Position numbers and translations under genes: made by a program. A stretch of DNA of 38,385 bases from a virus: positions 1 through 38,385 of the IMG/VR virus record IMGVR_UViG_3300032931_000318, one strand, 5' to 3'. A model generated the notes under the pieces. It saw nothing but the letters and a program-made list of their open reading frames with translations, searched no databases and was not told the DNA's origin. Below are positions 1,852 to 35,343 of this stretch, piece by piece; position 1 is the stretch's first letter; each line of letters opens with the position of its first letter.

Positions 1852-2517
1852 ATGCGCAACCCATTGATTTTATTACTCTTGCTATCATTATTTTCCTGCT
1901 CAAACATAAATACCAAACAAGACTTGTCGAAAGTCTATAAAAAAGACCTATACATGTCAGAAGGAAAGCGTGAGGGGACAGGTGTTTTAGTACTGCCTAA
2001 GCAAGATAACTATTCAATATTTGTTGAGTCTGACGGCAAGATAAACCTGCTAACATTCAGGACATGCTCACGTGAGATAATAATTAAAGATCCTCGCCAG
2101 GGATTATCACGCAAAAAATTTACTATTAAGTACGCTCCAAACGAAGTTGAAAAATCAGGTATATGTCAAACAGAGATAAGTGCTCTATCAATTGAGAATG
2201 AAAATTCATACGGGTTTATTGATTACGAGGACGCACAAGCAACTCTCCCTGCTGTAAACGTATGTGGCGGAGTTACCGAATCCACAGGAGGCGTCAGTAT
2301 CTGCCAGGAGCGACAAGGCATGATCGAAAAGATTAAGTTCAATACTGTAGTAGTCGCCGCTCCTACAGGTTGCGAACTTGATAAGAGAGAAGGACTTGAG
2401 TTTATATACTCAGTGAAAAATGGAATTTGCATTGTCGCGTTTTACGAAAAAAAAAGTCCTCACCGTATCCATAGGCTTACAATTTTAGGACATCAAGATC
2501 AACTTTTATCATTATAG
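1852..2517 (+). CDS. Phage-encoded lipoprotein
   Basis: An AAGGAG site lies 8 bases before ATG 1852. The product (221 aa) starts MRNPLILLLLLSLFSCSN: a charged start, a hydrophobic core and a lipobox LFSC with the acylated Cys at residue 16. It would therefore be exported and lipidated in the envelope. The mature part contains five further Cys residues and beta-type alternation, but no family I know. It is followed 9 bases later by a membrane coiled-coil gene and then a transglycosylase, so a lysis or envelope role is possible. It is too long for a typical Rz1 spanin lipoprotein. A superinfection-exclusion role is an alternative. Confidence 0.7.
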   Translation: MRNPLILLLLLSLFSCSNINTKQDLSKVYKKDLYMSEGKREGTGVLVLPKQDNYSIFVESDGKINLLTFRTCSREIIIKDPRQGLSRKKFTIKYAPNEVEKSGICQTEISALSIENENSYGFIDYEDAQATLPAVNVCGGVTESTGGVSICQERQGMIEKIKFNTVVVAAPTGCELDKREGLEFIYSVKNGICIVAFYEKKSPHRIHRLTILGHQDQLLSL

Positions 2518-2526
2518 GGGGAAGTT

Positions 2527-2844
2527 ATGGTAGCAGCGATATTGTCAATGTTGGGTGTTCTACTCCCGACAATTATCAAAATTGTCGGATATCTGATTGA
2601 TAAAAAGAAAAATTCCGACGACCTAAAAGTGGAGTTCCTAAAATTCGTTGCGTCGATCGAAAAGGATATGCCGATCAAATTAAGGAAGGATTATCTTGAT
2701 CAAATTGCACAGGTAAAAGAACAGTTGCAACTTGAGGAGACTAAGAAAACTACCCTAGTTGAAGAGCATGCAAACTATAAAGAGTCATATGAAAAACTTT
2801 TGTTAGAACACGAGGCGCTAAAATGTCAACTCTCCAAAAAATAA
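2527..2844 (+). CDS. Membrane-anchored coiled-coil protein, candidate holin or spanin-like
   Basis: This 105-residue protein begins with one hydrophobic segment (residues 2-26, including ILSMLGVLLPTIIKIVGYLI) followed by KKK and a long charged helix with heptad-like leucines to the end. One membrane segment plus a coiled coil fits an inner-membrane spanin (Rz-like) or a class III-type holin. A GGGGGAAG ribosome site precedes ATG 2527. The gene overlaps the next one, a lytic transglycosylase, by 22 bases, the usual arrangement of lysis cassettes. The exact lysis role is inferred from topology and neighbours. Confidence 0.6.
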   Translation: MVAAILSMLGVLLPTIIKIVGYLIDKKKNSDDLKVEFLKFVASIEKDMPIKLRKDYLDQIAQVKEQLQLEETKKTTLVEEHANYKESYEKLLLEHEALKCQLSKK

Positions 2845-3311
2845 AATCACTCATCACCCTAAAAGCTAAAGAGGCCTCCATTGATCCAAATATCCTACAT
2901 GCGCTTGTTATGACCGAGAGCGGCCATAACCCTTGGGCCATACGCTTTGAAGTTGATTATCGGTGGCTTTATGACGTCCCTGGCATGGCAAAGGCAGCAG
3001 GAGTAGATCCGCTAACTATGAAAATCATGCAACAGACTAGTTGGGGTATATGTCAAATAATGGGAGCTATCGCTTATGAGTATGGATTTAGAGGGTGGGC
3101 ACCGATGCTATGCGACCCTGAGTTAAATCTTAAATATGCGATTCTGCATCTTCAGAAAAAGATTAAGCATGAGCATCTATCTGACCCTTGTGATATATAC
3201 GGAAGTTATAATGCAGGATCAGTCAGGAAAAAGAATGGTGAGTATGTTAATAAGAAATATGTAGATAGATTTAGATTAAATTTGAACAAGATCACATTGC
3301 CAGATAATTGA
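2823..3311 (+). CDS. Lytic transglycosylase (SLT domain), probable endolysin
   Basis: The 162-residue protein has the hallmarks of the Slt/lysozyme-like fold. These are a catalytic Glu32 in MTESGHNPWAIR, the SWGICQIMG segment at residues 73-81 and YNAG near residue 129. Such enzymes cleave the glycan between N-acetylmuramic acid and N-acetylglucosamine, leaving an anhydro end. No signal peptide is present, so release would depend on a holin, and the preceding membrane protein is the candidate. The start lies inside the end of that gene (overlap 2823-2844), suggesting coupled translation. Its 3' end overlaps the convergent lipoprotein gene by 36 bases. Confidence 0.85.
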   Translation: MSTLQKIKSLITLKAKEASIDPNILHALVMTESGHNPWAIRFEVDYRWLYDVPGMAKAAGVDPLTMKIMQQTSWGICQIMGAIAYEYGFRGWAPMLCDPELNLKYAILHLQKKIKHEHLSDPCDIYGSYNAGSVRKKNGEYVNKKYVDRFRLNLNKITLPDN

Positions 3312-3608
3312 TTCGCCTAGAATAGATTTAAAATTAATGATCTCATTATTTTTTATATCGCCTTCATACGTCGCACGAAACGTCTCGCCGTATTTCCTTA
3401 AAACTAATTTCGATTTATCTCTTGAGATATTGGACACTGCAAATTGGTTGGTTCTAGTGCCGACCCAAATTTTCAGATAACCTTTATCGTCATTCAGTCT
3501 CAACTCGATCTTAGTAGGAAGACCAGTATGATCACGAGAGATATAAGTTTTCTCATTGTGCGTACACGACGTACACGATGTTAAAAATAACAAAACTAAT
3601 AAAATCAT
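3276..3608 (-). CDS. Small lipoprotein, last gene of the exported-protein operon
   Basis: I place the start at ATG 3608, which overlaps the stop of the upstream gene as ATGA. The upstream ATG at 3629 would add seven residues in front of the signal. From 3608 the protein begins MILLVLLFLTSCTSCTHNEK, a lipoprotein signal with the lipobox LTSC, giving about 110 residues in total. The mature part is beta-rich (ISRDHTGLPTKIELRLND) with one late Cys (WQCDL). I do not recognise it. It is coupled to two further exported proteins and is convergent with the transglycosylase gene. Confidence 0.7.
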   Translation of the reverse strand: MILLVLLFLTSCTSCTHNEKTYISRDHTGLPTKIELRLNDDKGYLKIWVGTRTNQFAVSNISRDKSKLVLRKYGETFRATYEGDIKNNEIINFKSILGESIIWQCDLVQI

Positions 3609-4354
3609 TTTCTTAATGTGCAAACCCATATCCTATTACCATGTAGAGACAATTCAAAATCAGAGATAGTAAAGTACTTCTCGTCGAATGTACCATGATA
3701 CTCTCCTTTGATTTTTGCATCTCTCTGTACGCAATGTACATCACGCCCAAATTTTTCTGATTGACTGCCGTCTAAATAAAAATCTAATTCACTATTAGAC
3801 GACCGACCGCAACATCTTAGTTGTATACCCGCTCTATAGCAAGTGCTTTCACCACGATATATGCATAGTCGGATATCAGCGCCTAGACCTCCGCTACCTT
3901 TACCAGTATAAACACCTAGAGGACACTTAAATGAAATATCTCTAGTGAATATTTCTGAAAAGACTCGCCAAAACTTGACATCGTTATTACGCTGTTCGTG
4001 CCGTAAATGAATAAAGTCTATCTCTCTTTTTAACAACGCCTTCGATGTTGCAGGAAGTTCTAATGCTAGCGATGATCCAATCCCTTCAAAGCTATCATCT
4101 CCATTGAATTTCCATTGCAAATATGGAGTGATAAATAATTCAAACAATCCCTCAATATCTGCTCCAATCGCAACCAAACCATGTAGTTGAGCGACCGCAG
4201 AGAATATTGTAATTAAGTTTGCATCTCTTATCTTCTCCTCAAGTTCTAATAGATCATCACGTGTCTCTCTGGAGAGTTGGTCAGGGCGTGGAAAGTCTTC
4301 AGCAGAGAATGCATTTATACTTATAAGTAAAATAAAAGTTATGATTAACTTCAT
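3605..4354 (-). CDS. Exported protein of unknown function, middle gene of the minus-strand operon
   Basis: ATG 4354 overlaps the previous stop (ATGA, 4351-4354). It opens a clean Sec signal peptide, MKLIITFILLISINAFSA, with cleavage expected before EDF. The mature protein of about 230 residues has a helical first half and a Cys-containing second half (KCPLG, RLCIYRGESTCY, LRCCGRSS, HCV, WVC). That half looks like a disulfide-bonded beta domain suited to the periplasm. I recognise no family. The motif GGAGAGTTG occurs in it at 4271-4279. A role in the envelope of the infected cell is inferred from the signal peptide. Confidence 0.7.
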   Translation of the reverse strand: MKLIITFILLISINAFSAEDFPRPDQLSRETRDDLLELEEKIRDANLITIFSAVAQLHGLVAIGADIEGLFELFITPYLQWKFNGDDSFEGIGSSLALELPATSKALLKREIDFIHLRHEQRNNDVKFWRVFSEIFTRDISFKCPLGVYTGKGSGGLGADIRLCIYRGESTCYRAGIQLRCCGRSSNSELDFYLDGSQSEKFGRDVHCVQRDAKIKGEYHGTFDEKYFTISDFELSLHGNRIWVCTLRK

Positions 4355-4852: not shown

Positions 4853-5278
4853 TCAAAAAGGCAGCTCGTCGCCGAAGTAACCATCGTTTGATACAGATGA
4901 TGGGGTTTGGAGAGTGGACGACTCCCGGAAGGGGTTTTGCGATGCTAGTGCGGTCTGGACGGCAGCATCTAAAGGCTTAACCTTTGGAGCAGATAAAAAT
5001 GTGATATCTAGGATCGTGTAATTATCTTTTTTAGTATTATCCTCGTTATTTGACATCTCACATTCTGCATATATTACCGATCCCTTCGATAAGTACTGGC
5101 AAATTAGCTCCGCCCGTTTCTCCCATGCAGTTAGGTAGACCCAATCAGTGACCTCCCCCTTAGAAGTTTTTCTTTTCTTATTCGACGCAACTGATATTGA
5201 ACAGAGTTTTTTACCTGTAGCGGTTGTTTTCATTTCTGGATCTTTACCAAGTCTGCCTATGACAGTCAGTTTAAACAT
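4853..5278 (-). CDS. ssb: Single-stranded DNA-binding protein
   Basis: The 141-residue protein has an OB-fold start typical of bacterial SSB (MFKLTVIGRLGKDPEMKTTA), aromatic positions in DWVYLTAWEKRAEL, a linker, and the acidic tip DELPF. That tip is the form of the DDDIPF tail that recruits host repair and replication proteins. It coats single-stranded DNA during replication and recombination. Its start overlaps the end of the initiator gene (5271-5278), so both are made from one minus-strand transcript. Length is slightly short for the family because the linker is short. Confidence 0.92.
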   Translation of the reverse strand: MFKLTVIGRLGKDPEMKTTATGKKLCSISVASNKKRKTSKGEVTDWVYLTAWEKRAELICQYLSKGSVIYAECEMSNNEDNTKKDNYTILDITFLSAPKVKPLDAAVQTALASQNPFRESSTLQTPSSVSNDGYFGDELPF

Positions 5279-6230
5279 TTAGAGTCTCCTGTTTTATTTT
5301 TTTATAAATTTTATGTCTTAACTCTTTAGGATAATTTCTAAAACTATCGCCACCATTTTTTCTGACTAGATCTTTTTCCGATTCGGGTAATTGATTGAAT
5401 AGTAAACCAGTTTCAACCCATTGTTCTATTAAATCATATTTAAATAGTAATCCTTTGGCACGATTCAAATAATAGGAGCAGTCACTTTTAAGTAAATAAG
5501 AAAAAGGATTATGGCATTTGTCTCCAGTATAAGATCCGTTAGACCCTAAATCAATGGCCATTAATAGTAGGTCTTCAGGGGTATGCCCTTGCTTTAAGAG
5601 AGTTTTATATGCAGATGATTCTGAATACATATTCTTTTTGGAGAGTTGGCGGGGGCCGTAGATTTTTATCTTTTCTTCTTCTTTAAGAGTTTTAAAAAAA
5701 CCAACTAACAGTTTTCCCTGTTGGTTAGTTCTTAGCTTATTTCTATAGCTTAGTTCTATGGGGTCCTCCAAACCGACCCCCCCCCGGTCCTCCAAACCGA
5801 CCCCCTCCCAGTCCTCCAAACCGACCCCCCTACAGGAAGGGGCATCTATAAGTATTTGAAATATGGAATATTTATTATTTTTTTCCCCTGTTACTACTTT
5901 TTCAGAGATATATTTTTTAAAAATAAGCGATTTTAATGCTTTAGAAATAGTATCTTTGTGAAAATTAAGTTTATCGGCCAGTTGATATCTAGAGGTTTGA
6001 TGATCAGTTTTAAAATGTCGAACCCCATATAGGTATATCAGTATAATAAATTGATAAATATCAATGATCTTAAACATATAAGCGGCGACTACTTGATTGG
6101 GAATATTGGTATATCCATTTATCCAAGCGGATAAGAATTTATTATTTAATAATTCAGGCGGAAAATCGAAAAAGTGTTTTTTGCACTTAACCATGGAGGG
6201 GTTGACTTCTGATTCAATTATACTTAACAT
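5271..6230 (-). CDS. Replication initiator, lambda O-like organisation
   Basis: The 319-residue protein has a winged-helix DNA-binding region at about residues 58-130, with a recognisable helix-turn-helix (SRYQLADKLNFHKDTISKAL). It is followed by a short linker made of three GVGLED units spaced eight residues apart, and then a helical C-terminal domain. The linker is encoded by three perfect 19-bp direct repeats flanked by an AT-rich stretch. Lambda O has the same plan: an N-terminal iteron-binding domain, origin iterons inside the gene, and a C-terminal domain that recruits the helicase loader. AAGGA lies 7 bases before ATG 6230. SSB follows with an 8-base overlap. No phage helicase loader is recognisable, so host loading is assumed. 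Confidence 0.75.
   Translation of the reverse strand: MLSIIESEVNPSMVKCKKHFFDFPPELLNNKFLSAWINGYTNIPNQVVAAYMFKIIDIYQFIILIYLYGVRHFKTDHQTSRYQLADKLNFHKDTISKALKSLIFKKYISEKVVTGEKNNKYSIFQILIDAPSCRGVGLEDWEGVGLEDRGGVGLEDPIELSYRNKLRTNQQGKLLVGFFKTLKEEEKIKIYGPRQLSKKNMYSESSAYKTLLKQGHTPEDLLLMAIDLGSNGSYTGDKCHNPFSYLLKSDCSYYLNRAKGLLFKYDLIEQWVETGLLFNQLPESEKDLVRKNGGDSFRNYPKELRHKIYKKIKQETLNV
5763..5829. repeat. Three origin-type iterons inside the initiator gene
   Basis: GTCCTCCAAACCGACCCCC occurs three times without a mismatch at 5763-5781, 5787-5805 and 5811-5829, a strict 24-bp period. The conservation is at the base level, and the intervening five bases vary. On the minus strand the repeats encode GVGLED. 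Confidence 0.8.
5836..5935. other. AT-rich stretch beside the iterons, candidate DNA unwinding element
   Basis: Directly next to the GC-rich iterons lie about 100 bases dominated by A and T (for example around 5851-5890 and 5906-5928), within the initiator gene. Iterons plus adjacent AT-rich DNA is the layout of lambdoid origins. Confidence 0.5.
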
Positions 6231-6517: not shown

Positions 6518-6739
6518 ATGGTTTTTAAGCAGTTACTTATGCAAGTCAGAGGAGATGGGAGTCTAATTCCTGTTTCAGTGAGGCTATTGCCTGCCCATAA
6601 AGAACTTTTGAGAGGACTAGGCAGCGGGAATATCAACGCAGGAATTGGAATTTTAATGGCGACAGTTGAGAATGATATTAAGAGGCATTTAAAATTGCCT
6701 ATGCGTGCTCCGAAAAAGAAAGTTAGAGGTAGGAAATGA
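6518..6739 (+). CDS. Small hypothetical protein, first gene of the ERF operon
   Basis: AGGAG sits 6 bases before ATG 6518. The 73-residue protein begins MVFKQLLMQVRGDGSLIPVS, has a glycine-rich middle (LRGLGSGNINAGIGIL) and a strongly basic end (RAPKKKVRGRK). The basic tail suggests nucleic-acid contact, but no fold is recognisable. It overlaps the ERF gene by ATGA (6736-6739) and would be co-translated with it, so a recombination accessory role is possible. Confidence 0.65.
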   Translation: MVFKQLLMQVRGDGSLIPVSVRLLPAHKELLRGLGSGNINAGIGILMATVENDIKRHLKLPMRAPKKKVRGRK

Positions 6740-7404
6740 AACACACAGAAACGATTGCAAAGCTATCAGAGGCGTTATCAAAAGCACAGGGGAGCATACA
6801 GGGAGCATTGAGAGATAGAAAAAACCCTTTTTATAATAGTAAATATTCAGACCTAGCATCTATATGGAAATGTGCAAGGGAGCCGCTTGCACAAAATGGG
6901 TTAGCTGTAATCCAGGGGACATTCATTACAGAGGATGGGAAAATAATATTGGAAAGTAAGCTCACTCATTTATCAGGAGAATGGATAAGTAGTTTCTATC
7001 CAGTTGAGCCGATTAAAAAAGATCCACAGGGTCTAGGTAGTGCACTCACATATGCCAGGAGGTATTCTCTCCAATCATTACTAGGGATATGTGCTGACGA
7101 CGACGACGACGGCAATGCTGCGTCCTCTGCTCCTCGTACTCAGGTGGCATCTCCTCCTCCTGTACAAGTTATCAAACCAATGCCGATACCTACACCTGTG
7201 CAGGAAATTAAAAAAGATACTGTAGCAGATGAAGTTATGAAAAAAATATCTATCCTGTCTAATGGATATAAAGACGAGGGAAGACTTAATTTTATTTTAG
7301 AAAATTTGGGGGTTAAAACGTCTAAGGAAATTATGGCGCTAGATGATAATTCATTACTAGATATGATTGCTAAACTAGACGAATTGAAAAACGATTTTAA
7401 ATAA
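6736..7404 (+). CDS. erf: ERF-family single-strand annealing protein
   Basis: The first 125 residues match the ERF recombinase pattern: LSKAQGSIQGALRDRKNPFY, NSKYSDLASIWKCAREPL, then QNGLAVIQG and GSALTYARRYSLQSLLGI. ERF proteins anneal complementary strands and help circularise or recombine phage DNA. A run of five Asp residues (encoded by GACGACGACGACGAC) and a Pro-rich linker (about 127-160) lead to a small helical C-terminal domain. The protein is 222 residues, close to family size. Translation is coupled to the upstream gene. An ERF protein is consistent with circularisation of a permuted genome. Confidence 0.88.
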   Translation: MKHTETIAKLSEALSKAQGSIQGALRDRKNPFYNSKYSDLASIWKCAREPLAQNGLAVIQGTFITEDGKIILESKLTHLSGEWISSFYPVEPIKKDPQGLGSALTYARRYSLQSLLGICADDDDDGNAASSAPRTQVASPPPVQVIKPMPIPTPVQEIKKDTVADEVMKKISILSNGYKDEGRLNFILENLGVKTSKEIMALDDNSLLDMIAKLDELKNDFK

Positions 7405-8965: not shown

Positions 8966-9388
8966 ATGTTCAAAAAAATCAGAAGAGTCAACTCTCCATT
9001 AAAAAAAGTAACTCCTAAAATTCTGGAGAAGGATATTGAACGTGGGATATTGCATTATCTATCAACGCTATCCCATATAAAAGTTTGGAAACAAAATAGT
9101 ATAGGAGTTTTTGACGCTAAGACTGGTAGATATCGTTTACCACATTCTCCATATATCATTAGAGGGGTATCTGACGTCATTGGGATAATCAACTATGGGT
9201 TATGTAACGGTCAAAATTGTGGACGTTTCCTGGCCGTAGAAATTAAAACTCCAAAGCGCAAAGGTAATGTCAGCGATGATCAAAAGCAATTTATTAAAAT
9301 GATTACAAGTAACGGAGGATTAGCATTCGTTGCTACATCTATCGACGATGTTAAAGAAGTATTCAAGAGAGAGGGAATTAGTACATGA
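8966..9388 (+). CDS. VRR-NUC domain nuclease
   Basis: The 140-residue protein shows the conserved VRR-NUC layout. An N-terminal Glu in EKDIERGILHYL is followed by VWKQNSIGVFD and GRYR. The catalytic Asp70 is in GVSDVIGI and the Glu92-x-Lys94 pair in LAVEIKTPKRKG. These small PD-(D/E)XK enzymes are structure-selective nucleases or Holliday-junction-type resolvases, common beside phage replication and packaging genes. AGGAATT lies just before ATG 8966. Likely roles are resolving branched DNA before packaging or processing replication intermediates. Confidence 0.88.
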   Translation: MFKKIRRVNSPLKKVTPKILEKDIERGILHYLSTLSHIKVWKQNSIGVFDAKTGRYRLPHSPYIIRGVSDVIGIINYGLCNGQNCGRFLAVEIKTPKRKGNVSDDQKQFIKMITSNGGLAFVATSIDDVKEVFKREGIST

Positions 9389-10248: not shown

Positions 10249-10802
10249 GAATTGAGTGCGCACATACTAGACTGGTAAAACTGTCAGACTTGCGCCCACA
10301 TCCTGATAACCTTAATAAGCATTCTGAGGCACAGATAAGGGCACTGGCGAAGATCATTGCACAGAATGGACAGCGTAGCCCTATTGTAGTTAGTAACCAG
10401 AGTGGGGTTATAACGAAGGGTAATGGGCGATATGAGGCGATTAAGTCACTTGAGTGGGAGAGTTGTGCTGTTGATTTTCAAAACTATGCGGATGAGTTGG
10501 AGGAGTTGAGAGATAGAGTCGCAGATAACGAAATAGCTAAATATGCCGAATTTAATAAAGCTGGATTTATTGATCAATTGAAAGAATTAGACCTAGACAT
10601 TGACGAAATAGATTGCGAGGAGTTTGGTTTATTAGATTTTATAATGCCACCGATTGACCCATTAGAAGATATTGATACCGAAAAAATAAAAGAAGATCTT
10701 AATAAGAAATATATATTAGAAATAACTTTCCCTAATGAAATGGAGCTTGCAGATATTAGAGATGATTTAATTTCTCGTGGTTATATAGTGAGAGAGAAGT
10801 AA
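10245..10802 (+). CDS. ParB-like N-terminal domain protein
   Basis: Residues 10-80 carry the ParB/sulfiredoxin-fold pattern: LVKLSDLRPHPDNLNKHSEAQIRALAKII, NGQRSPIVV and ITKGNGRYEAIKSLEW. The GNGRYEA segment corresponds to the nucleotide-binding box that ParB proteins use for CTP. No ParB-type helix-turn-helix follows. The C-terminal half is acidic and helical. In many phages this domain is fused to or paired with a DNA methylase next to the terminase. Here the stop overlaps the methylase start (TAATG at 10802), so the two are probably partners. A partition role is not implied. Confidence 0.82.
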   Translation: MRIECAHTRLVKLSDLRPHPDNLNKHSEAQIRALAKIIAQNGQRSPIVVSNQSGVITKGNGRYEAIKSLEWESCAVDFQNYADELEELRDRVADNEIAKYAEFNKAGFIDQLKELDLDIDEIDCEEFGLLDFIMPPIDPLEDIDTEKIKEDLNKKYILEITFPNEMELADIRDDLISRGYIVREK

Positions 10803-12126: not shown

Positions 12127-13410
12127 ATGCTAGAAAATGATTTACGTATTCCATTTGCAAAAACTCAACGCCAAAAAGAGGCAATAAATATATTAGCAAG
12201 CGACGCTAAACATTGCATGTTATATGGTGGGAGTAGAAGTGGAAAAACTTTTATCATTGTTTACGCTATTATTATTAGAGCTGCAAAAGAAAAATCAAGA
12301 CATGTAATACTTAGATCTAAATTTAATCACGTGAGGACTTCCATTTTCATGGACACTTTGCCAAAAGTTTTAGACTTAGCATTCCCTAATTTACATGCTT
12401 TAATTAATAAAACAGATTCAACATTAGTTCTACCAAATGGTAGTGAGATATGGCATGCAGGATTAGATGATAAGCAGCGTGTAGAGAAGATTTTAGGGAA
12501 GGAATATAGTTCAATTTATTTTAACGAATCATCTCAAATTGAATACTCCTCTATTTCAATGGCACTCACTAGACTGGCAGAAAAAAACAAACTTAAAAAA
12601 AAAGTTTATTACGACGAAAATCCTCCAACTAAATCACACTGGTCATACTGGCAATTTATAAAAAAACTAGATCCAGTTCAAAATATTCCATTAAAAAATC
12701 CTGACATGTATGCATCAATGTTAATGAATCCGAATGATAATCAAGAGAATATTGATCAAGATTATTTGGCGATGCTACAGGAGTTACCCGAGCGTGATCG
12801 AAATAGATTTTTATTCGGAATGTTTAACGATACTAATGACGGGGTTGCTTATTATTCTTTTGTTAGAGAACGACATGTGGTGAAAAATGTTGAATCCGAT
12901 CATGGAACTACATTCATTGGTTTAGATTTTAACGTGAATCCTATGACAGCAGTTGTATGTAAGATGGTAAACGATAGATTGCATGTGATAGATGAGGCGT
13001 ATCTTGAAAACAGTGATACTTATAAAATGTGCGCTCATTTAAAATCAAAGGGATATGTCGGTACTGTTATCCCTGACAGTACAGGTGCTAATAGAAAAAC
13101 TTCTGGACGTACAGACTTCCAGATATTGGAAGAGGCAGGGTTCCAAATATTATCAACTCGTAACCCATACGTAGTAGACCGGATCAATAATCTAAATCGA
13201 ATCTTCTCTCACGATATGATTAAAATAGATGATAAGTGCAAAAAGTTAATAAACGACCTAGAAAAAGTTGGTTGGAAAAACGGGGATCTTGACGAGGGGA
13301 ATGATAAGATGCTGACGCATATTAGCGATGCACTAGGTTATGCAGCATGGAAACTAATACCAATGGCAAAGCGACTTGATAAGTTACAAATTAATCGGAT
13401 TGGTAGATAA
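12127..13410 (+). CDS. terL: Terminase large subunit
   Basis: The 427-residue packaging motor has a Walker A loop GGSRSGKT at residues 34-41 and a Walker B stretch SSIYFNE at 128-134, with the catalytic Glu last. The C-terminal RNase H-like nuclease has GLDFN (Asp267), an Asp in VIPDSTG, and ISDALGY near the end. It translocates DNA into the prohead through the portal and cuts the concatemer. The start follows the small-subunit stop with no gap. Together with a gp6-type portal this resembles the SPP1/P22-style headful group, consistent with a permuted genome. Confidence 0.93.
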   Translation: MLENDLRIPFAKTQRQKEAINILASDAKHCMLYGGSRSGKTFIIVYAIIIRAAKEKSRHVILRSKFNHVRTSIFMDTLPKVLDLAFPNLHALINKTDSTLVLPNGSEIWHAGLDDKQRVEKILGKEYSSIYFNESSQIEYSSISMALTRLAEKNKLKKKVYYDENPPTKSHWSYWQFIKKLDPVQNIPLKNPDMYASMLMNPNDNQENIDQDYLAMLQELPERDRNRFLFGMFNDTNDGVAYYSFVRERHVVKNVESDHGTTFIGLDFNVNPMTAVVCKMVNDRLHVIDEAYLENSDTYKMCAHLKSKGYVGTVIPDSTGANRKTSGRTDFQILEEAGFQILSTRNPYVVDRINNLNRIFSHDMIKIDDKCKKLINDLEKVGWKNGDLDEGNDKMLTHISDALGYAAWKLIPMAKRLDKLQINRIGR

Positions 13411-13426
13411 TAAGCAAGAGGGCAAT

Positions 13427-15055
13427 ATGAAAATAAAAAATGATAGTGACATACTGAATCAAGATCTTAGAGTTCAATTTATTCAAGATATAAATAACTC
13501 TTCAAATATAGAACGCAAAAAATTTATGAAACGTCGGTATGACGTTTTTAAAGACAATACTAAAAAGTATGTCTTAGAGAATTTTAAAAATGAAACATCC
13601 GCAGGGGAAGAGATACTCCCTGAGATAAAAAGTAGAGCATCGAACCTATCCTTTTGTCGCAAGATCATTGATAAAAAATGCATGGTCTATAAGGACGGTG
13701 CCAAAAGAGAAGTTGCAGGAGATGAGAATCAAGAGTTACAGACTGCAATAGACATATTAAGTAACCTACTTAATATGGATTCTACAATGAAAAAAGCAAA
13801 TAAGTACGAGGAGCTATTTAAGAATAGTCTAGTGAGTGTGCTGCCCTACGAGGCGACAAATGGTTGGAGGCTTAAATTAAGTGTAATTGCTCCATATTTA
13901 TATGACGTAATAGAAGACGCAAACAATCCTGAGCTTGCAAAGGTTATTGTTTTTAGTAACTATGTACCGACTGATAGCAAAACAACGTCAGGATTTACGC
14001 ATGCACAGGCAGCAGGATTTAGAAATAAGACTACTAGTCTAAGTGATTACACCGATCTAAATGACACGATTGAAAGTTTATCAAACTGTCCTACCGATGA
14101 GATCGAATATATATGGTGGTCAGATAATTATCATTTCACTACCAATGCAAAAGGTGAAATTATCCCTGGTAAACAAGAGATCGATTTATCGAATCCGATT
14201 GGAGAGTTGCCGTTTGTAGACTTCTCGCATGAGAAGGACGGAAGTTTCTGGGCAGTCGGTGGCGAGGATATCGTTGAGGGTGCGATTCTTTTAAATATGC
14301 TATTGACCGATCTTTATTTCATAGCAAAATTTCAGGGTATGGGCATCGGATATATGTTTGGCAAAGGCGTGCCAAAAAATATGAAAGTGGGGCCGTCTAG
14401 TTTTGTTACATTAGAAGTAGAGCAGGGCGACCCAACTCCTTCTCTAGGGTTTGCATCGTCTAATCCTCCAATTGATTCACACATTAAAATGATAGAGGGA
14501 TATCTTGCTTATCTTTTGTCTACTAATAATCTTGATGCAGGATCAATTGTTGGGACTTTGAGCGCACAAAATGCAGCGTCAGGTATACAGGAAGTAATTA
14601 AGCGTGCTGATAACCTAGATGATATTGAAGATCAGCAGGAGATATATAAGGATAATGAGCCTCAGATATATAAGTTGGTATTTAAGTGGATCAATTTATA
14701 TTTTGAGCGAGGTCTACTTGCTAGCGAATTTATGGAAGTAGGAAAAATTCCTGAAGATCTAAAGGTTATTACAAAATTTAATAAACCTCACGCATATCTA
14801 TCTGAAAAAGATCGTCTTGATGTCATTGAAAAACGATTAATGCTTGGGCTTGATTCTAAGGTCGACGCAATCATGCAAGATAATCCAAATCTAACAAAAG
14901 AAGAAGCAGAAGAGAAGCTAGAGAGGATTAATCAAGAGGTTACAGATAATCAAAAGTCTAAAATGGATATGTATACTAATGCAAATCCTAAACCTATGGC
15001 AAATGGTGCGATGAATGAAGAAGATAACGTACAAGATGACTCTGCCTCTGAGTGA
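13427..15055 (+). CDS. Portal protein (SPP1 gp6-like)
   Basis: I choose ATG 13427, preceded by AGAGGG, rather than the ATG at 13376 inside the terminase gene. The 542-residue product has portal-type sequence: FCRKIIDKKCMVYKDGAK near the start, GELPFVDFSHEKDGSFWAVGGEDIVEGA, and a stem/crown-like region with NAASGIQEVIKRADNLDDIEDQ. It would form the ring through which DNA enters and to which the tail attaches. The C terminus is acidic. The motif GGAGAGTTG occurs at 14201. The end overlaps the connector gene by about 40 bases. Confidence 0.85.
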   Translation: MKIKNDSDILNQDLRVQFIQDINNSSNIERKKFMKRRYDVFKDNTKKYVLENFKNETSAGEEILPEIKSRASNLSFCRKIIDKKCMVYKDGAKREVAGDENQELQTAIDILSNLLNMDSTMKKANKYEELFKNSLVSVLPYEATNGWRLKLSVIAPYLYDVIEDANNPELAKVIVFSNYVPTDSKTTSGFTHAQAAGFRNKTTSLSDYTDLNDTIESLSNCPTDEIEYIWWSDNYHFTTNAKGEIIPGKQEIDLSNPIGELPFVDFSHEKDGSFWAVGGEDIVEGAILLNMLLTDLYFIAKFQGMGIGYMFGKGVPKNMKVGPSSFVTLEVEQGDPTPSLGFASSNPPIDSHIKMIEGYLAYLLSTNNLDAGSIVGTLSAQNAASGIQEVIKRADNLDDIEDQQEIYKDNEPQIYKLVFKWINLYFERGLLASEFMEVGKIPEDLKVITKFNKPHAYLSEKDRLDVIEKRLMLGLDSKVDAIMQDNPNLTKEEAEEKLERINQEVTDNQKSKMDMYTNANPKPMANGAMNEEDNVQDDSASE

Positions 15056-20137: not shown

Positions 20138-20141
20138 AAAC

Positions 20142-23619: not shown

Positions 23620-24452
23620 ATAGAGTTTTTTATTCAGACAATGGGATACTGATTGATTTTAGCGCATACTTAAATGATTATCATAATGGGTCACACACTA
23701 TCCCTGCATTTGTTGCGTTAGAAGATGCAATCTATATAGGGAATACTGTCCCCTTTAATCATATTTATTTTAAATTAGACACATACAATACAAATAGTTC
23801 ATTAATGAGTGTTGCATATTGGGATAGTAAAACCTGGACTAATGCAGTTGAAGTTATTGATGAGACTATGACCAATGGTAAAAGTTTTTCTCAGTCTGGA
23901 TTCGTCACGTGGACTCCTTCAAAAGATGAATCATGGGTCGATGAAGATACTAATTATAAAAATTCAACTATTACAGGTCTAACATCTATATCGATTTATG
24001 ATCTTTATTGGTTAAAGATAAGTTTTAGTGCAAATTTATCATCGTTTGGTTTGTCATGGGTTGGACAGAAATTTTCAGACGATGATACGTTGGGAGCAGA
24101 GTTCCCTGATCTAGTTAGAAGTGCTGTTATGTCTGCATGGGAGTCAGGCAAGACTACATGGGAAGAGCAGCACGTAATCGCTGCCGATATCATGGCAAAA
24201 GATTTAATGGCAAAGGGTTTGATCCTTGAAAAGGGTCAGATACTAGATCGCTTTGATCTTGATAAGCCTGCCGTCCAAAAAGTAGCAGAGATAATTTATG
24301 GTGGGTTAGGTGCTGATTATACTGATCAGAAGTTAGCTGCAAGAAAAGAATATGATACTCGATTAAATACTGCGTTGCCTAAAGTTGATACAAACTTGAA
24401 TGGGAGAGTTGACACTACTGAAAGAACACAGACAGGGAAATTATACCGATGA
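23616..24452 (+). CDS. Probable head-tail or tail-associated virion protein
   Basis: GTG 23616 overlaps the preceding stop. The 278-residue product has a beta-rich first part (HIYFKLDTYNTNSSLMSVAYWDSKTW), a helical middle (VRSAVMSAWESGKTTWEEQH) and a short polar tail. The last 90 residues resemble helical connector sequence. It is coupled to the tail-terminator gene by ATGA (24449-24452). I assign it to the virion by position only. Confidence 0.6.
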   Translation: MNRVFYSDNGILIDFSAYLNDYHNGSHTIPAFVALEDAIYIGNTVPFNHIYFKLDTYNTNSSLMSVAYWDSKTWTNAVEVIDETMTNGKSFSQSGFVTWTPSKDESWVDEDTNYKNSTITGLTSISIYDLYWLKISFSANLSSFGLSWVGQKFSDDDTLGAEFPDLVRSAVMSAWESGKTTWEEQHVIAADIMAKDLMAKGLILEKGQILDRFDLDKPAVQKVAEIIYGGLGADYTDQKLAARKEYDTRLNTALPKVDTNLNGRVDTTERTQTGKLYR

Positions 24453-26754: not shown

Positions 26755-27008
26755 TCGGAGAGTTGGCAGGTCTCCTCGATAATCCATGTCTCCTCGAAGA
26801 TGTAAAAGAAATAAATCCTGCTAGACATAAAGAATATGAGGAGAATATGGAACACTTTACAATGTTTGCCTATGTGTTCAAGTGTAAAGAGCTTGGACTT
26901 TCTTTACATGCTAATGACTTTGATGTAGAGCAGATTGATTCGATGTACGAGATAATGAGAATCAATATCGAAAAAGAAAAAAGGAAGGCAAAAGCACATG
27001 GCAGATAA
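26748..27008 (+). CDS. T-type extension of the tail assembly chaperone, reached by -1 frameshift
   Basis: This frame has no ATG start. It is entered from the chaperone gene by a -1 slip on A-AAA-AAG. The -1 frame is closed by TAA at 26739-26741 just before the slip, and the 0 frame by TGA at 26752-26754 just after it, leaving only about ten bases for the shift. The extension reads ALIGELAGLLDNPCLLEDVK and on for 86 residues, giving a fusion of about 192 residues. A TTG at 26751 could serve as start but is less likely. Confidence 0.83.
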   Translation, partial: ALIGELAGLLDNPCLLEDVKEINPARHKEYEENMEHFTMFAYVFKCKELGLSLHANDFDVEQIDSMYEIMRINIEKEKRKAKAHGR

Positions 27009-29574: not shown

Positions 29575-30698
29575 CAATAGTTACAAATAAAAATGTACGG
29601 TTTGCAGAGAATAATTTTGCCGAGTTGATCAGTGCTAGCATTGAATACTCATCTCAACTCTCCGCATTCCCTTTTTCAAATTGCATAAATCGTTTCCGAT
29701 CAAAACTATGGAAACCCTCTGGTAACTTTACAATTACCGATCTAAATAATAAGATTTATATCAATGACGGCGCTAATAAAACAATAACTTTAACTAATGG
29801 AAATTATTCCACTCCTGTATTACTAGCATCCCATATTCAAACTCAATTAAATTCCACATCTAGCAATTGGGTTGTTTCATATGTCACAGGGACTTATAAA
29901 TTTTCAATAACCCATACAGGAAATGCAACTCTCCGATTCTCCCAAACGACTAATTCCACATGGGACACTCTAGGATATCTAGGTACTTCCGACGTAGTTG
30001 GTACTAGCTTTTTAGCTGATGATCAACGTAACCATACGAGTGAATATTGTATTTTCGATATGGGTTACCAGGCAGACATAACGTTTTTTGCAGTTATAGG
30101 GCCATTACAATATATTTTCCCTATCTCCACTACGGCAACGATTACATTAAAAGCAAATAACTTAAATCAATGGGACACTGTGCCATTGAGTATCACTCTT
30201 GATAGATCCGACGCAGGAATTTTTAAATTTTTAGACGATGTAATTGATAGTCGATTTAGATTTTGGAGGTTTGAATATGAAGACCGACGTAATCCTAACG
30301 GCCCTGAAGGCACTAGTATTGGTCATATTTATATTGGCGATTATCTCACGCTAGCGAATAGGAATATTGAAGTTGGTTTTAATAAGCATCTTATAGATCC
30401 ATCTGAAACAAAAGAATCAGAAAATGGAGCGGTCTATTTTGATCGTCGTACTAAGTACGGAACTTTTAGCAATCTGACTTTGCAATATTTAGAACGTGCA
30501 GATAAGGATATGTTGGAGGACTTATTTAATAGGCTAGGAATTTATACACCATTTTATATTTCATTAGATCCAACCTTATCAATATCAGATACATATGGAG
30601 AGTTTACAAAGTATGTAACATTCTCTACGGCACCAGACTTCACACATATCATATTTGATAAGTTCAATATGCAAATGGATTTTAGGGAGCAGGTATGA
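29571..30698 (+). CDS. Distal tail/baseplate protein with inserted domain
   Basis: The start overlaps the tape measure stop (ATGA). The 375-residue protein begins MTIVTNKNVRFAENNFAELI, and its location after the tape measure fits the distal tail position. At about residues 45-140 it carries a block (INDGANKTITLTNGNYSTPV, LASHIQTQLN, WVVSYVTGTYKFSI) related to the insert of the tail tube protein. The remainder is beta-rich (CIFDMGYQADITFFAVIG). It contains two CAACTCTCC sites, at 29655 and 29926. Confidence 0.65.
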   Translation: MTIVTNKNVRFAENNFAELISASIEYSSQLSAFPFSNCINRFRSKLWKPSGNFTITDLNNKIYINDGANKTITLTNGNYSTPVLLASHIQTQLNSTSSNWVVSYVTGTYKFSITHTGNATLRFSQTTNSTWDTLGYLGTSDVVGTSFLADDQRNHTSEYCIFDMGYQADITFFAVIGPLQYIFPISTTATITLKANNLNQWDTVPLSITLDRSDAGIFKFLDDVIDSRFRFWRFEYEDRRNPNGPEGTSIGHIYIGDYLTLANRNIEVGFNKHLIDPSETKESENGAVYFDRRTKYGTFSNLTLQYLERADKDMLEDLFNRLGIYTPFYISLDPTLSISDTYGEFTKYVTFSTAPDFTHIIFDKFNMQMDFREQV

Positions 30699-31171
30699 GT
30701 TTATATAATTTTAGTAATGTGCAATATGTTAAGAGTATAGATACTGGAGAGTTGATTCGGTGCGGAAGTTTTAAAGTATCCCAAAATGCTGAGTTAGCAT
30801 ATGTTAGACCATTGATATATGTGCAAGGTATTTTGGGAGGGAATGAACGATTAAGAGCTAGGTTTTATTCCGATGAGAATCACAGTGCAAGCAAACTTCT
30901 ATTTACATCTAAATGGACTCCTAAACTATCGACTGCATTCTCAGAATGGTGGCTTGGGTTTATTGCAATAGAGTTCGGAGGTGAGAATTTAAATCCAAAT
31001 ATTCCATACTATGTTGAGATCGAACTTGACGGATATACTCGAAACGGAGAAGTTTTTTATATAGGAGTATGTAGAGATTTTCCTTATCCGATTTATAAGA
31101 TTACACCGACTCCACAAAGATTTTATCAACATCCACAGGCATTACAAATATTCAATCGGATTGAAAGATGA
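30695..31171 (+). CDS. Small baseplate/tail-tip protein
   Basis: Coupled by ATGA on both sides (30695-30698, 31168-31171), this 158-residue protein is a single beta-rich domain (LAYVRPLIYVQGILGGNERL, YYVEIELDGYTRNGEVFYIG). It lacks recognised motifs. Tight coupling to its neighbours suggests stoichiometric assembly in the tail tip. It contains GGAGAGTTG at 30746. Confidence 0.62.
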   Translation: MSLYNFSNVQYVKSIDTGELIRCGSFKVSQNAELAYVRPLIYVQGILGGNERLRARFYSDENHSASKLLFTSKWTPKLSTAFSEWWLGFIAIEFGGENLNPNIPYYVEIELDGYTRNGEVFYIGVCRDFPYPIYKITPTPQRFYQHPQALQIFNRIER

Positions 31172-33198
31172 CATTTTCAGATAAAAAAGAGTTACAGGTA
31201 ACTCGGAAATTTGAATTAGTTAGAATAAACCCTGCACGATATATTGTAGATGATCTTGTTTCTATTGGAGGAGGCAAGTATACTTATTCTACCAGCTACT
31301 TTGTAAGTACAGTCGAGGAGAGTGGTGTTGCTTTGAATAAGGTCAGCACCGTCCCCTCGATTGGAGAATATTATTTCGATGAACAGAATTCACTGTTAAC
31401 CATATATCCGACAATAGCGCCCTCTGTTAGTAATCCTATATTGATGTATCATTATTTGTTTTTCACTGGAGAGATCTATCGAACTTGGTATGAAAATCCA
31501 GACGACAATGCCACACCATTGAGAGATTGGTTACCACTTCTTAAAACCTCACCTAGTGTCACTCAGTCAATAGAAGATTTATTAGCAGGGGTGCTATCCA
31601 TATCAGTATCAACAATTGATATATTGAATAATAACTATGAGTTGAATCAATATTTAACAATCAATGATTCATTTTATAATAAAGAAATAAAAATTTGGTT
31701 ATGCCTCGACGACGAAACAAACTCTCAAAAGATTTACGAGGGTAGAGCGTCGAGGTTAACAATAACTAAAGAGTCAATGATTTTAGAGGTCAGTGATTCA
31801 ATGTCATTACTTTCTAACCCTGCTCTAATGGGAGATGATTCAGCAGACGCTTATTACACTCTTGATGATAATCCTAATTTAAATCCATCCTCAACTGGTA
31901 ATCCTCGTCCGTGGATCATTGGTACATGCTCACGTTATCAAACTATAAGCGATTCTACTACCAACCTTGTAGAGGCAAAAAAGCTCGATATAGATACATT
32001 GTATTCTGCAATTTGTATAAATTACAGTACGGCTATCAGTGTTTCAACTAATAGAGAGTGGGGAATTTGTAGGACGACGAGTGCAGGTTTTCAAGACTTC
32101 ACTCATACAGTTTTAGCAGTTGATAATAGTGATATAAATTTTACAAAATTTACTTCTGCAAGTGCCGACGTTGCTAAGATATATATTGGCGACACATTTG
32201 TTATTAATTATTTAAGCACTGACTATTACGGGCGTGTACTTTATGTTGATCGTGTTTCTGATTTTATATACACGACTCCTATGGCAGTGGCAGGGACTCC
32301 AACTATACAAGGGAATAACTGTCCTTCAATTGTAATCAGTCAGAATGCTATTTCATATTATTTAAATTATGGTCAGCATTATACTGCAACGGTTATAACC
32401 ACTAGTGGAGGTAATAAACTTTTAAATATTACTTTCAATAATAATTTTGAATCTTTACTTGGAATGACTGAGTTAAGTCCTACGATTGATATTGTTTATT
32501 ATAGAGTTCGACCAACTAGAATGTTACATGGAGAGTTGGTTAAGGAAATTGTAGAGTCAGCAGGAATAAATGTTAATAGTGCATCAATAGTTGCATCGAA
32601 TTTATTACTTCCTGTATACACTTCATTATCAATTCCTAAATACGATGAGAATGATTTTAGCGATTACCTCAGTTATTTGCAGCATATTTTAGAATCTACA
32701 TTTAGTTATGTTGCATTGAATAATAACTTTGAACTGGTTTATTCATTATTTACAGACCCAACTTCAATAGATGAGATAACTGATACAGAAATTATTCTGG
32801 ATAGTTTTTTTACAACAATTGATTATCAAGATATTGTTTCACAAATTATCGCATACAATCCGCATGCAAACAGTGTCGAATTCGTGTCTAAAACTGGTAC
32901 AAGTCTAAAATCATTCAAGGCGCAGTATCTCCACGGATTTTCTAGGACGGTTAGATTTCAACATTGTTTGGAAGATATCACTAGCAGAATCACACAAATG
33001 CTAGAATATAGAAGTAACCGAGTAGCAAAATATTCAATGGACACAGCGTCTAAAAATTTAGATTCTAAAATTGGAGATGATTTTAAATTGAATAAAAACG
33101 GACTACTAGGAGAGTTGACTAAGCAGGTTAGATTAATCGGTATCGATAAAAAGTCTAATATGACAAGTATAATTTTAACTGATTTAGGAGTGCAATAA
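31168..33198 (+). CDS. Tail-tip hub protein (Tal/gp27-like, tentative)
   Basis: The 676-residue protein follows the small tail-tip protein. Its early part (DILNNNYELNQYLTINDSFY, KIWLCLDDETNSQKIYEGRA) resembles the hub domains of tail-associated proteins. The late part (PTRMLHGELVKEIVESAGIN, YHPH-type and EFVSKTG blocks) could form the trimeric collar. No cell-wall hydrolase motif is visible, so enzymatic activity is not claimed. It carries two GGAGAGTTG sites (32530, 33109). The assignment rests on order and size. Confidence 0.6.
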   Translation: MTFSDKKELQVTRKFELVRINPARYIVDDLVSIGGGKYTYSTSYFVSTVEESGVALNKVSTVPSIGEYYFDEQNSLLTIYPTIAPSVSNPILMYHYLFFTGEIYRTWYENPDDNATPLRDWLPLLKTSPSVTQSIEDLLAGVLSISVSTIDILNNNYELNQYLTINDSFYNKEIKIWLCLDDETNSQKIYEGRASRLTITKESMILEVSDSMSLLSNPALMGDDSADAYYTLDDNPNLNPSSTGNPRPWIIGTCSRYQTISDSTTNLVEAKKLDIDTLYSAICINYSTAISVSTNREWGICRTTSAGFQDFTHTVLAVDNSDINFTKFTSASADVAKIYIGDTFVINYLSTDYYGRVLYVDRVSDFIYTTPMAVAGTPTIQGNNCPSIVISQNAISYYLNYGQHYTATVITTSGGNKLLNITFNNNFESLLGMTELSPTIDIVYYRVRPTRMLHGELVKEIVESAGINVNSASIVASNLLLPVYTSLSIPKYDENDFSDYLSYLQHILESTFSYVALNNNFELVYSLFTDPTSIDEITDTEIILDSFFTTIDYQDIVSQIIAYNPHANSVEFVSKTGTSLKSFKAQYLHGFSRTVRFQHCLEDITSRITQMLEYRSNRVAKYSMDTASKNLDSKIGDDFKLNKNGLLGELTKQVRLIGIDKKSNMTSIILTDLGVQ

Positions 33199-34061: not shown

Positions 34062-34072
34062 GGGGGTTTCTC

Positions 34073-35065
34073 ATGGCCGTTATTGAAAAAGAGTGGTTAG
34101 CTACAGACGCAGTAGACGATAGTAATTTTAAATTGACTAATAACGCTTATCTTAAAGCAAGGAATTTTCTCGATACTGCTGACGTAAATGTAATAAAACT
34201 AAATGCAAGCAATGTAATTGAACTTGCATCTGTACCACAAGTTCCTTCTGATCCGAGTGCTAATAATGATCTAGTTAGAAAATCATGGGCAGACACTCAA
34301 CTCTCCGGTAAACAATCAACAAGTGCAAAAGATCAAGCAAATGGATATGCCGGACTAGATGCAGGCGGAAAAGTTTTAGCATCTCAAATTCCATTAGAGT
34401 TTATGGCATTAAAAGGTAATTGGAATGCTACAACCAATTCACCTGCTTTAGCAGACGGCACAGGTGATCAAGGTGATGTTTGGAGAGTTAGCGTAGCAGG
34501 CACTCAGGACTTAGGATCAGGATCGCAAATTTTCGGCGTTGGCGACTGGTGTATGTATACAACAGATAACGTCTGGAAAAGATCCCCTGCTACAGATGCA
34601 GTCACAAGTGTAAATGGTAAAACTGGCGCCGCTGTATTAGTAACAGATGATATTGCAGAAGATGCATCACCTTTAAATTTATGGTTTACAGATGCACGTG
34701 CAAAAACAGCAGCAGTTTTAAATACAACCGCAGGGACTGAAACCGATCAGGCCGCATCTGTTTCTGCAATGAAGTCATATGTATCAACTGCAATCGGTGC
34801 TATCACAGGAGCTGATTCAGAATTAGAAGTTAAAACTTTAGTAGCTCAAGATATTACAAACCAATATGTTGATCTTGGATTTAAAGCAATGACTGATAGT
34901 TGTGTTGTATGGCCTATTGGAGGCCCGATCCAAACACCAACAACTGATTACACTTTAAGTTATACAGGTGGCACTGGTGGCGTTACACGATTAACTTTTG
35001 CAGGAGACCTTGCAAGCAAATTAGTAGCAACAAGTAAATTAGCAATTAAATATTTGAAAGGATGA
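34073..35065 (+). CDS. Tail fibre protein
   Basis: The 330-residue protein has typical fibre sequences: DPSANNDLVRKSWADTQLSG, GYAGLDAGGKVLASQIP, VTSVNGKTGAAVLVTDDIAE and NLWFTDARA. Its end has the unit TDYTLSYTGGTGGVTRLTFA. GGGGG precedes ATG 34073. It carries CAACTCTCC at 34298. The fibre probably supports the larger receptor-binding protein downstream; a shaft role is inferred from its repeat character. Confidence 0.75.
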   Translation: MAVIEKEWLATDAVDDSNFKLTNNAYLKARNFLDTADVNVIKLNASNVIELASVPQVPSDPSANNDLVRKSWADTQLSGKQSTSAKDQANGYAGLDAGGKVLASQIPLEFMALKGNWNATTNSPALADGTGDQGDVWRVSVAGTQDLGSGSQIFGVGDWCMYTTDNVWKRSPATDAVTSVNGKTGAAVLVTDDIAEDASPLNLWFTDARAKTAAVLNTTAGTETDQAASVSAMKSYVSTAIGAITGADSELEVKTLVAQDITNQYVDLGFKAMTDSCVVWPIGGPIQTPTTDYTLSYTGGTGGVTRLTFAGDLASKLVATSKLAIKYLKG

Positions 35066-35071
35066 TTATAA

Positions 35072-35320
35072 ATGGCAACCCTAAAAAATGATTGGGTTGA
35101 CTTGGAAATGATATCAGACAGTGGTGCAGGAAATGGTACCACTGTCGATTTCGTTACAACAAGTAATATCAAATCATCAAATAGCACACTAGTATTTGTA
35201 GACGGGTTATTAAGAAATATAACAACTGATTATACTATTTCATTGGTAACCGATACCGTTTCATTTGTTATCGCCCCTGCGTATGGTCAGAAAATTAATA
35301 TTCGATATTTTAAAAGATAA
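35072..35320 (+). CDS. Small fibre-associated beta protein
   Basis: This 82-residue protein is essentially one copy of the beta unit seen at the ends of the neighbouring proteins: STLVFVDGLLRNITTDYTIS, VSFVIAPAYGQKINIRYF. The likeness to the C terminus of the 34073 product (TDYTLSY) suggests it caps or extends the fibre. A weak AAGGATG lies upstream. Confidence 0.65.
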   Translation: MATLKNDWVDLEMISDSGAGNGTTVDFVTTSNIKSSNSTLVFVDGLLRNITTDYTISLVTDTVSFVIAPAYGQKINIRYFKR

Positions 35321-35343
35321 AAAGATTAAGGAGAGTTGGGATA

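What the first reader, a model, noticed from the sequence alone, without database searches (positions are those of the whole stretch)
2240..35338. The 9-mer GGAGAGTTG occurs 21 times on the two strands
I counted exact copies by eye. Plus strand starts: 4271, 5640, 10457, 14201, 17705, 20102, 22910, 24403, 26757, 30746, 32530, 33109, 35330. As CAACTCTCC: 2240, 2827, 8989, 15140, 20123, 29655, 29926, 34298. Uniform chance predicts about 0.3 copies in 38 kb of both strands. The copies fall in different reading frames (Gly-Glu-Leu, Gln-Leu-Ser, Asn-Ser-Pro and others) and in intergenic DNA, so protein conservation does not explain them. One pair forms both arms of a terminator, as uptake words do in Neisseria and Pasteurellaceae. 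The word is absent from the accessory cassette. Possible roles are an uptake-like word, a Chi-like site, or a binding site for a phage or host protein.
Basis: partly seen in the sequence, partly recalled or inferred. Interest (0 to 1): 0.87.

Follow-up and report, generated by a model that had tools for sequence, protein, structure and literature searches.

The report
Phage saturated with one 9-base word
A complete 38 kb bacterial virus of unknown host carries one exact 9-letter DNA word 21 times, about 40 times more often than expected, in the same pattern as the "take me up" words that viruses of Haemophilus share with their hosts, so it may point to a third, undescribed DNA-uptake word in bacteria.

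Summary
In detail: all 21 copies of GGAGAGTTG (13 +, 8 -) lie exactly where stated. An order-3 Markov model predicts 0.52 copies, dinucleotide shuffles 0.16, and synonymous-codon shuffles 0.33 inside genes against 18 counted there. It is by far the most over-represented scattered word here. One-mismatch variants are not enriched, so the word is sharp. The window is very probably a complete circular tailed-phage genome. In 80 contigs of related phages the word is essentially absent; at the aligned sites checked, relatives differ from the word by 2-8 substitutions, almost always without gaps, so copies arose in place. The closest quantitative match is Haemophilus phage HP1 and its host's uptake signal AAGTGCGGT: 0.53 copies/kb against 0.55 here, with the same sharpness, in-gene location and mixed orientation. 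One inverted pair forms a strong terminator. Mycobacteriophage stoperators are equally enriched but mostly intergenic and oriented; Chi was not a leading word in two control phages. No host was found among about 1,100 sampled genomes or by a word-pair scan of 84,980 species. Best reading: the uptake word of an unsequenced competent host (about 0.5). Chi-like or another binding word remains possible. No function is shown.

The parts
2240..2248 (-). word copy 1, antisense in ORF 1852-2517
   Evidence: exact match
2827..2835 (-). word copy 2, in the overlap of ORFs 2527-2844 and 2823-3311 (lysozyme-like), antisense to both
   Evidence: exact match; SLT domain
4271..4279 (+). word copy 3, antisense in ORF 3605-4372 (-)
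   Evidence: exact match
5640..5648 (+). word copy 4, antisense in replication-protein ORF 5271-6230 (-)
   Evidence: exact match; PHROG replication initiation
8989..8997 (-). word copy 5, antisense in VRR-NUC ORF 8966-9388
   Evidence: exact match; Pfam
10457..10465 (+). word copy 6, sense in ParB-like ORF 10245-10802
   Evidence: exact match; PHROG
14201..14209 (+). word copy 7, sense (Gly-Glu-Leu) in ORF 13376-15055; relatives keep the frame but differ by 3-6 bases
15140..15148 (-). word copy 8, antisense in ORF 15015-15464; relative L130 has the same residues with two base differences
17705..17713 (+). word copy 9, not in a listed ORF
20102..20110 (+). word copy 10, left arm of terminator
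20123..20131 (-). word copy 11, right arm of terminator
22910..22918 (+). word copy 12, sense (Gly-Glu-Leu) in ORF 22046-23017
24403..24411 (+). word copy 13, sense in ORF 23616-24452 (Gly-Arg-Val frame)
26757..26765 (+). word copy 14, sense (Gly-Glu-Leu) in ORF 26751-27008
29655..29663 (-). word copy 15, antisense in ORF 29571-30698
29926..29934 (-). word copy 16, antisense in ORF 29571-30698
30746..30754 (+). word copy 17, sense (Gly-Glu-Leu) in ORF 30695-31171
32530..32538 (+). word copy 18, sense (Gly-Glu-Leu) in ORF 31168-33198
33109..33117 (+). word copy 19, sense (Gly-Glu-Leu) in ORF 31168-33198
34298..34306 (-). word copy 20, antisense in ORF 34073-35065
35330..35338 (+). word copy 21, between ORFs 35072-35320 and 35344-37320; its GGAG sits at ribosome-binding distance from the ATG at 35344 (reading of the sequence, not tested)
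   Evidence: sequence
20100..20138 (+). intrinsic terminator whose two arms are inverted word copies (ATGGAGAGTTGA / TCAACTCTCCAT) followed by a T run, 22 bp after the stop of ORF 19559-20077
   Evidence: 13-bp stem, -19.4 kcal/mol, z -4.5
12127..13410 (+). terminase large subunit, used to find relatives
16746..17588 (+). major head protein
6736..7404 (+). ERF-family recombinase: the phage has its own annealing recombination
   Evidence: Pfam E 2e-21
4853..5278 (-). single-strand DNA-binding protein

Best explanation
GGAGAGTTG most likely behaves in this phage as AAGTGCGGT does in Haemophilus phages: it is the DNA-uptake word of a naturally competent host that has not been sequenced, or is absent from the collections searched. 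Shown: exact, scattered, over-represented about 40-fold, sharp at all nine positions, mostly inside genes in both orientations, absent from relatives, evolved in place, and one inverted pair used as a terminator. Inferred: the host's surface DNA receptor prefers DNA with the word; uptake followed by recombination (molecular drive) enriches it in the host chromosome and in resident or co-infecting phage DNA, until the phage reaches host-like density.
For: (1) HP1 control with identical code: AAGTGCGGT 17 times in 32.4 kb (11 +, 6 -), expected 0.60, 0.53/kb, one-mismatch forms 9 against 10.5 expected, circular gap CV 0.49; window 21, 13/8, 0.52, 0.55/kb, 13 against 9.7, CV 0.64. A blind scan of HP1 puts its uptake word first, and the core or its 1-base extension comes first in Aaphi23. 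(2) Gene ends: 9/17 in-gene copies lie within 15% of a gene end (P 0.04), 8/15 in HP1; Pasteurellaceae uptake words show such a bias (PMC2346458). (3) Inverted copies make a strong terminator; uptake words occur in up to 22% and 37% of terminators in some Pasteurellaceae and Neisseriaceae (PMC13020248). (4) Density 547/Mb; in 2,045 tailed phages a 100/Mb cut-off singled out the Pasteurellaceae phages, with saturation near 750/Mb (PMC6776037). (5) Copies arose by substitution in place, as described for uptake words (PMC1939737).
Against: No host with the word was found: at most 39/Mb in about 1,100 sampled genomes, and no enriched genome in a scan of 84,980 species for facing pairs of the word. 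No second phage with the word was found by four word-pair scans of IMG/VR. The phage shows no recognised integrase or repressor, whereas known uptake-word-rich phages are mainly temperate and large lytic ones are poor (PMC6776037). Unlike the Haemophilus word, no flanking AT-rich extension is seen; the 3' flank is GC-richer than average. Third control PHL101 shows only weak enrichment, so phages of competent hosts vary.
Confidence: 0.5

Rival explanations
1. A Chi-like site: the word stops the host end-resection nuclease (RecBCD, AddAB or AdnAB), and the phage has accumulated it to protect linear DNA ends and recruit recombination.
For: Non-palindromic, scattered in genes on both strands. E. 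coli phages that do not inhibit RecBCD are enriched for Chi whether or not they have their own recombinase (PMC3784561), and this phage has an ERF recombinase with no recognised inhibitor. It needs no lysogeny.
Against: Chi in E. coli phages reaches about 0.2/kb and observed/expected 2-3 (PMC3784561); here 0.55/kb and about 40. Known Chi words were weak or absent in phi11 (5 against 2.1 expected) and TP901-1 (0), and neither led the blind scan. Known Chi words are 5-8 bp (own knowledge). No significant strand skew.
Confidence: 0.2
2. Binding sites for a phage or host DNA-binding protein other than those above, such as a stoperator-like repressor, a nucleoid or partition protein (a ParB-like gene lies at 10245), or a primase with a long recognition site.
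For: Stoperators of D29 and Bxb1 give equally strong blind-scan scores, so enrichment alone does not separate the classes. The phage encodes a ParB-like protein.
Against: D29 stoperators are mostly intergenic or at gene junctions and follow the direction of transcription on each arm (PMC9283540). Here 17 of 21 copies lie inside genes, 8 sense and 9 antisense. No repressor-like protein was recognised. Variants are not enriched, unlike the degenerate D29 sites.
Confidence: 0.2
3. A by-product: protein motif (Gly-Glu-Leu), codon bias, ribosome-binding sequences or a dispersed repeat.
For: Six copies encode Gly-Glu-Leu and one may sit at a ribosome-binding site.
Against: Synonymous shuffles give 0.33 against 18; copies occur in all six frames relative to genes and in non-coding DNA; flanks share no sequence; at aligned sites relatives differ by substitutions, almost always without gaps.
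Confidence: 0.03
4. A motif linked to DNA modification or restriction, given two DNA methyltransferase genes at 10802 and 37487.
For: Two methyltransferases, one with a nuclease-like C-terminal tail across the contig junction.
Against: Restriction normally depletes sites; no known benefit of accumulating a methylation site (own knowledge).
Confidence: 0.05

Closest known systems
Uptake signal sequence AAGTGCGGT in Haemophilus phage HP1 and Aaphi23 (Pasteurellaceae, Hin-USS)
   Same: 9-mer; 0.53 and 0.40 copies/kb against 0.55; expected about 0.6; no excess of one-mismatch forms in HP1; both orientations; mostly in genes
   Different: Unrelated sequence; host unknown; no integrase or repressor recognised; no AT-rich flanking extension
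DNA uptake sequence GCCGTCTGAA and dialects (Neisseriaceae)
   Same: Genome-wide non-palindromic word, often as inverted pairs in terminators (PMC13020248)
   Different: Unrelated sequence; known dialects are variants around a CTG core (PMC12616744, PMC3630211)
Chi sites
   Same: Short, non-palindromic, scattered in phage genes
   Different: Much higher density and enrichment here; used in a terminator; no significant strand skew
Stoperators of cluster A mycobacteriophages (L5, D29, Bxb1)
   Same: Asymmetric word about 20-30 times in one phage, strong in a blind scan
   Different: Stoperators are 13 bp, degenerate, mostly intergenic and oriented with transcription (PMC9283540)

Membership tests
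DNA uptake words (USS/DUS) | Strong genome-wide over-representation of a short non-palindromic word | tested here: met
   21 against 0.52 expected in the phage
DNA uptake words (USS/DUS) | Scattered in both orientations, mostly in genes | tested here: met
   13/8 by strand; 17 of 21 in genes, 8 sense and 9 antisense
DNA uptake words (USS/DUS) | Inverted pairs used as terminators | tested here: met
   One pair, 20100-20138; a single case
DNA uptake words (USS/DUS) | Enriched in the chromosome of a host | tested here: inconclusive
   Host unknown; no enriched genome found
DNA uptake words (USS/DUS) | Raises DNA uptake by competent cells, recognised by a pilin-type receptor | not testable with these tools
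   Needs the host
DNA uptake words (USS/DUS) | Matches a known dialect | tested here: not met
   GGAGAGTTG is unrelated to AAGTGCGGT, ACAAGCGGT and GCCGTCTGAA; hence not filed as a member of either known family
Chi sites | Attenuates the host end-resection nuclease and stimulates recombination | not testable with these tools
   Needs the host enzyme
Chi sites | Enrichment level seen in phages (about 0.2/kb, observed/expected 2-3) | tested here: not met
   0.55/kb and about 40 (PMC3784561)
Chi sites | Skew to one strand along replication | tested here: inconclusive
   13 against 8; origin unknown
Stoperators | Mostly intergenic | tested here: not met
   17 of 21 in genes, against 10 of 30 in D29
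Stoperators | Orientation follows transcription | tested here: not met
   8 sense, 9 antisense
HIP1 of cyanobacteria | Palindrome GCGATCGC | tested here: not met
   0 copies in the window

The most novel reading that the evidence does not exclude
GGAGAGTTG is the DNA-uptake word of a third, unrelated lineage of competent bacteria, independent of Pasteurellaceae and Neisseriaceae, and it has saturated the genome of a phage that appears not to be a classical lysogen, so phage DNA itself would be an efficient substrate for uptake.
Probability: 0.42. Interest if true: 0.82.

Novelty: new variant of a known kind. Interest (0 to 1): 0.64.

Why it matters
Well-characterised uptake words are known from only two bacterial families, so their origin cannot be compared across many independent cases. 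A phage that carries such a word at host-like density gives the word's exact sequence before the host is known, so the host can be sought simply by counting the word in genomes. A third system would make the question of how uptake specificity arises directly testable. If the word proves Chi-like, it would be an unusually long and dense Chi. Either way, a blind scan of phage genomes for scattered words, which put the known uptake word (or its 1-base extension) first in two of three control phages and the stoperators first in both mycobacteriophages, is a cheap way to find more such systems.

Tried and rejected
Cyanobacterial host, suggested by a Synechococcus-phage terminase match: 98 cyanobacterial genomes show no enrichment and HIP1 is absent. 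Bacteroidota host, suggested by pair hits in Pinibacter and Daejeonella: those hits are in a degenerate intergenic satellite (GAGTTGAGAATGGAGAGTTGAGA), and 247 genomes show no enrichment. Gammaproteobacteria (369 genomes), the phylum of a Berkelbacteria MAG (192) and that of Oceanobacillus (199): none enriched. Prophage relatives of the terminase: none at E 1e-40 in 299 genomes of the Oceanobacillus phylum or 247 Bacteroidota; one partial match (54%) in 266 Gammaproteobacteria, whose genome has only about 6 copies of the word per Mb. Four orientation and spacing variants of word pairs in IMG/VR: only chance hits. Single-protein and broad-alignment terminase searches failed before a two-sequence alignment worked. 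Literature search for the word itself: the 20 papers listed of 608 that hold the string were all unrelated by title. An extended consensus around the 9-mer: only weak T at -1 (12/21), not significant after counting positions. Even spacing: P 0.005 on the linear map falls to 0.026 on the circular map, so it is only weak support.
Full report
WHAT IS THERE. The window is a tailed-phage genome with 36% G+C: terminase small and large subunits, major head protein, tail and tape-measure proteins, a replication protein, single-strand-binding protein, ERF recombinase, VRR-NUC nuclease, ParB-like protein, two DNA methyltransferases and a lysozyme-like protein. The methyltransferase ORF that starts at 37487 runs off the right end and continues in frame from base 2 to 385, giving one uninterrupted protein, so the contig is very probably a complete circular map of 38,385 bp. 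No integrase or repressor was recognised.

THE COUNT. The 21 copies are exact and at the stated positions. Expectations are 0.15-0.5 copies for low-order models and 0.4-0.7 for orders 3-5 once the copies are masked. Synonymous-codon shuffling, which keeps every protein and the codon pool, gives 0.33 copies in genes against 18. The word is sharp: neighbouring one-mismatch forms are at expectation and the two outer bases are fixed. In a blind scan of scattered 7-10-mers over about 100 viral loci, including 80 relatives, the window's word stands alone (log10 P -19; next -6.7).

WHERE THE COPIES ARE. Seventeen lie within predicted genes (8 sense, 9 antisense), four outside. Six of the sense copies read Gly-Glu-Leu, but others use other frames. 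Copies are mildly concentrated towards gene ends (9 of 17 within 15% of an end, P 0.04, not corrected for the three cut-offs tried). Spacing is a little more even than random (circular P 0.026, one-sided and post hoc). Two copies, 20102 + and 20123 -, are the arms of a 13-bp hairpin followed by a T run, 22 bp after a stop codon (-19.4 kcal/mol, z -4.5). This is a terminator by form, but once one arm holds the word the other must too, so it is one event, not two.

RELATIVES. A two-sequence terminase alignment found 80 viral contigs (up to about 62% identity). Whole records of 21 of them hold 0-4 copies each. Where the in-gene sites align with a relative, the relative has 2-8 base differences, almost always without a gap. 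For example at 15140 relative L130 keeps the same residues with two base changes. The word was therefore built in place by substitutions in this lineage and was not inserted as a repeat.

CONTROLS. From memory I expected Haemophilus phage HP1 to carry its host's uptake word, and tested it. HP1 has AAGTGCGGT 17 times in 32.4 kb (11 +, 6 -), expected 0.60, one-mismatch forms 9 against 10.5, 15 of 17 in genes; the blind scan ranks it first. Aaphi23 has 17 copies in 43 kb, with AAAGTGCGGT and AAGTGCGGT first and second. Mannheimia phage PHL101 has only 6 copies of its dialect, so not every phage of a competent host is saturated. Stoperator phages D29 and Bxb1 also score very high in the blind scan, so enrichment alone cannot separate uptake words from operators. 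But D29 sites are mostly intergenic or at gene junctions and oriented with transcription on each arm (PMC9283540), which the window's copies are not. Chi words were not enriched in TP901-1 and only weakly in phi11; published Chi density in coliphages is about 0.2/kb with observed/expected 2-3 (PMC3784561). The published profile of uptake words in phages (a 100/Mb cut-off separating Pasteurellaceae phages among 2,045, saturation near 750/Mb, PMC6776037) brackets the window's 547/Mb.

HOST SEARCH. A scan of 84,980 species genomes for TGGAGAGTTG facing CAACTCTCCA within 31 bp gave 95 hits; none of the retrieved stretches is dense in the word, and many lie in local satellites or hairpin repeats. 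By my estimate a host with about 500 copies/Mb would give roughly 0.6 chance pairs per Mb plus terminators, so a host in that set would probably have shown; this is an estimate, not a proof. Direct counts in about 1,100 genomes from five groups plus scattered handles reach at most 39/Mb. Four word-pair scans of IMG/VR found no second enriched phage.

JUDGEMENT. What is shown is a real, sharp, lineage-specific, genome-wide word that evolved in place. What is inferred is its use. The uptake-word reading fits most features and has a close quantitative precedent. Its weak points are the missing host and the apparent lack of a lysogenic lifestyle, which is how phages are thought to accumulate such words. 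A Chi-like or other binding role is next. The word does not belong to either known uptake family by sequence, so it is reported as working like an uptake word, not as a member of USS or DUS.

Noticed in passing
window 37487-38385 continuing at 2-385: One methyltransferase ORF crosses the contig junction in frame, ending GGIANPKGGGDKGIDG...PIQVKQ, which resembles an Mrr/PD-(D/E)xK nuclease motif: a likely methyltransferase-nuclease fusion and evidence that the genome is complete and circular.
   Followed up: partly
window 11313-11465: A 9-bp minisatellite (ACTCGAACG/ACTCCAACA type) inside the methyltransferase gene 10802-11761 encodes a run of QLERLQRLRRLQ-like repeats.
   Followed up: partly
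window 5762-5833: Three 24-bp G+C-rich repeats in the replication-protein gene encode GVGLEDxx three times.
   Followed up: no
L025, L038, L042, L049 and other Actinoplanes sp. TBRC 11911 loci: A high-copy hairpin repeat (CCTTGGAGAGTTGTGG...GCGCAACTCTCCAAGG) scattered in this genome contains the same 9-mer in both arms; probably an unrelated mobile or palindromic element.
   Followed up: no
L045, L086, L099, L102 (Pinibacter), L035 (Daejeonella), L043 (Paludibacter): Degenerate satellites of the type GAGTTGAGAATGGAGAGTTGAGA recur in several Bacteroidota.
   Followed up: no
L024, L026, L053, L065, L088, L118 (Terrabacteria ANGP1 MAGs): Similar degenerate repeats GTTGGAGAGTTGGAAAGTTG in G+C-rich genomes.
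   Followed up: no
L186:5242-7161 and L191:1393-8958: Related phages have long conserved start-site contexts (ATAAGGAATAGATGATG; AAAGGATAGAxxATG) repeated at many genes.
   Followed up: partly
L004:1277-7434: TAATATTAGGTTGTGC-like element recurs, all in one orientation, about every 0.5-1.7 kb; possibly an operator or promoter element.
   Followed up: no
L160: Weak scattered enrichment of CTCCAGTT (8 against 0.44 expected) in a relative; its flanks share nothing, like the window's word.
   Followed up: no
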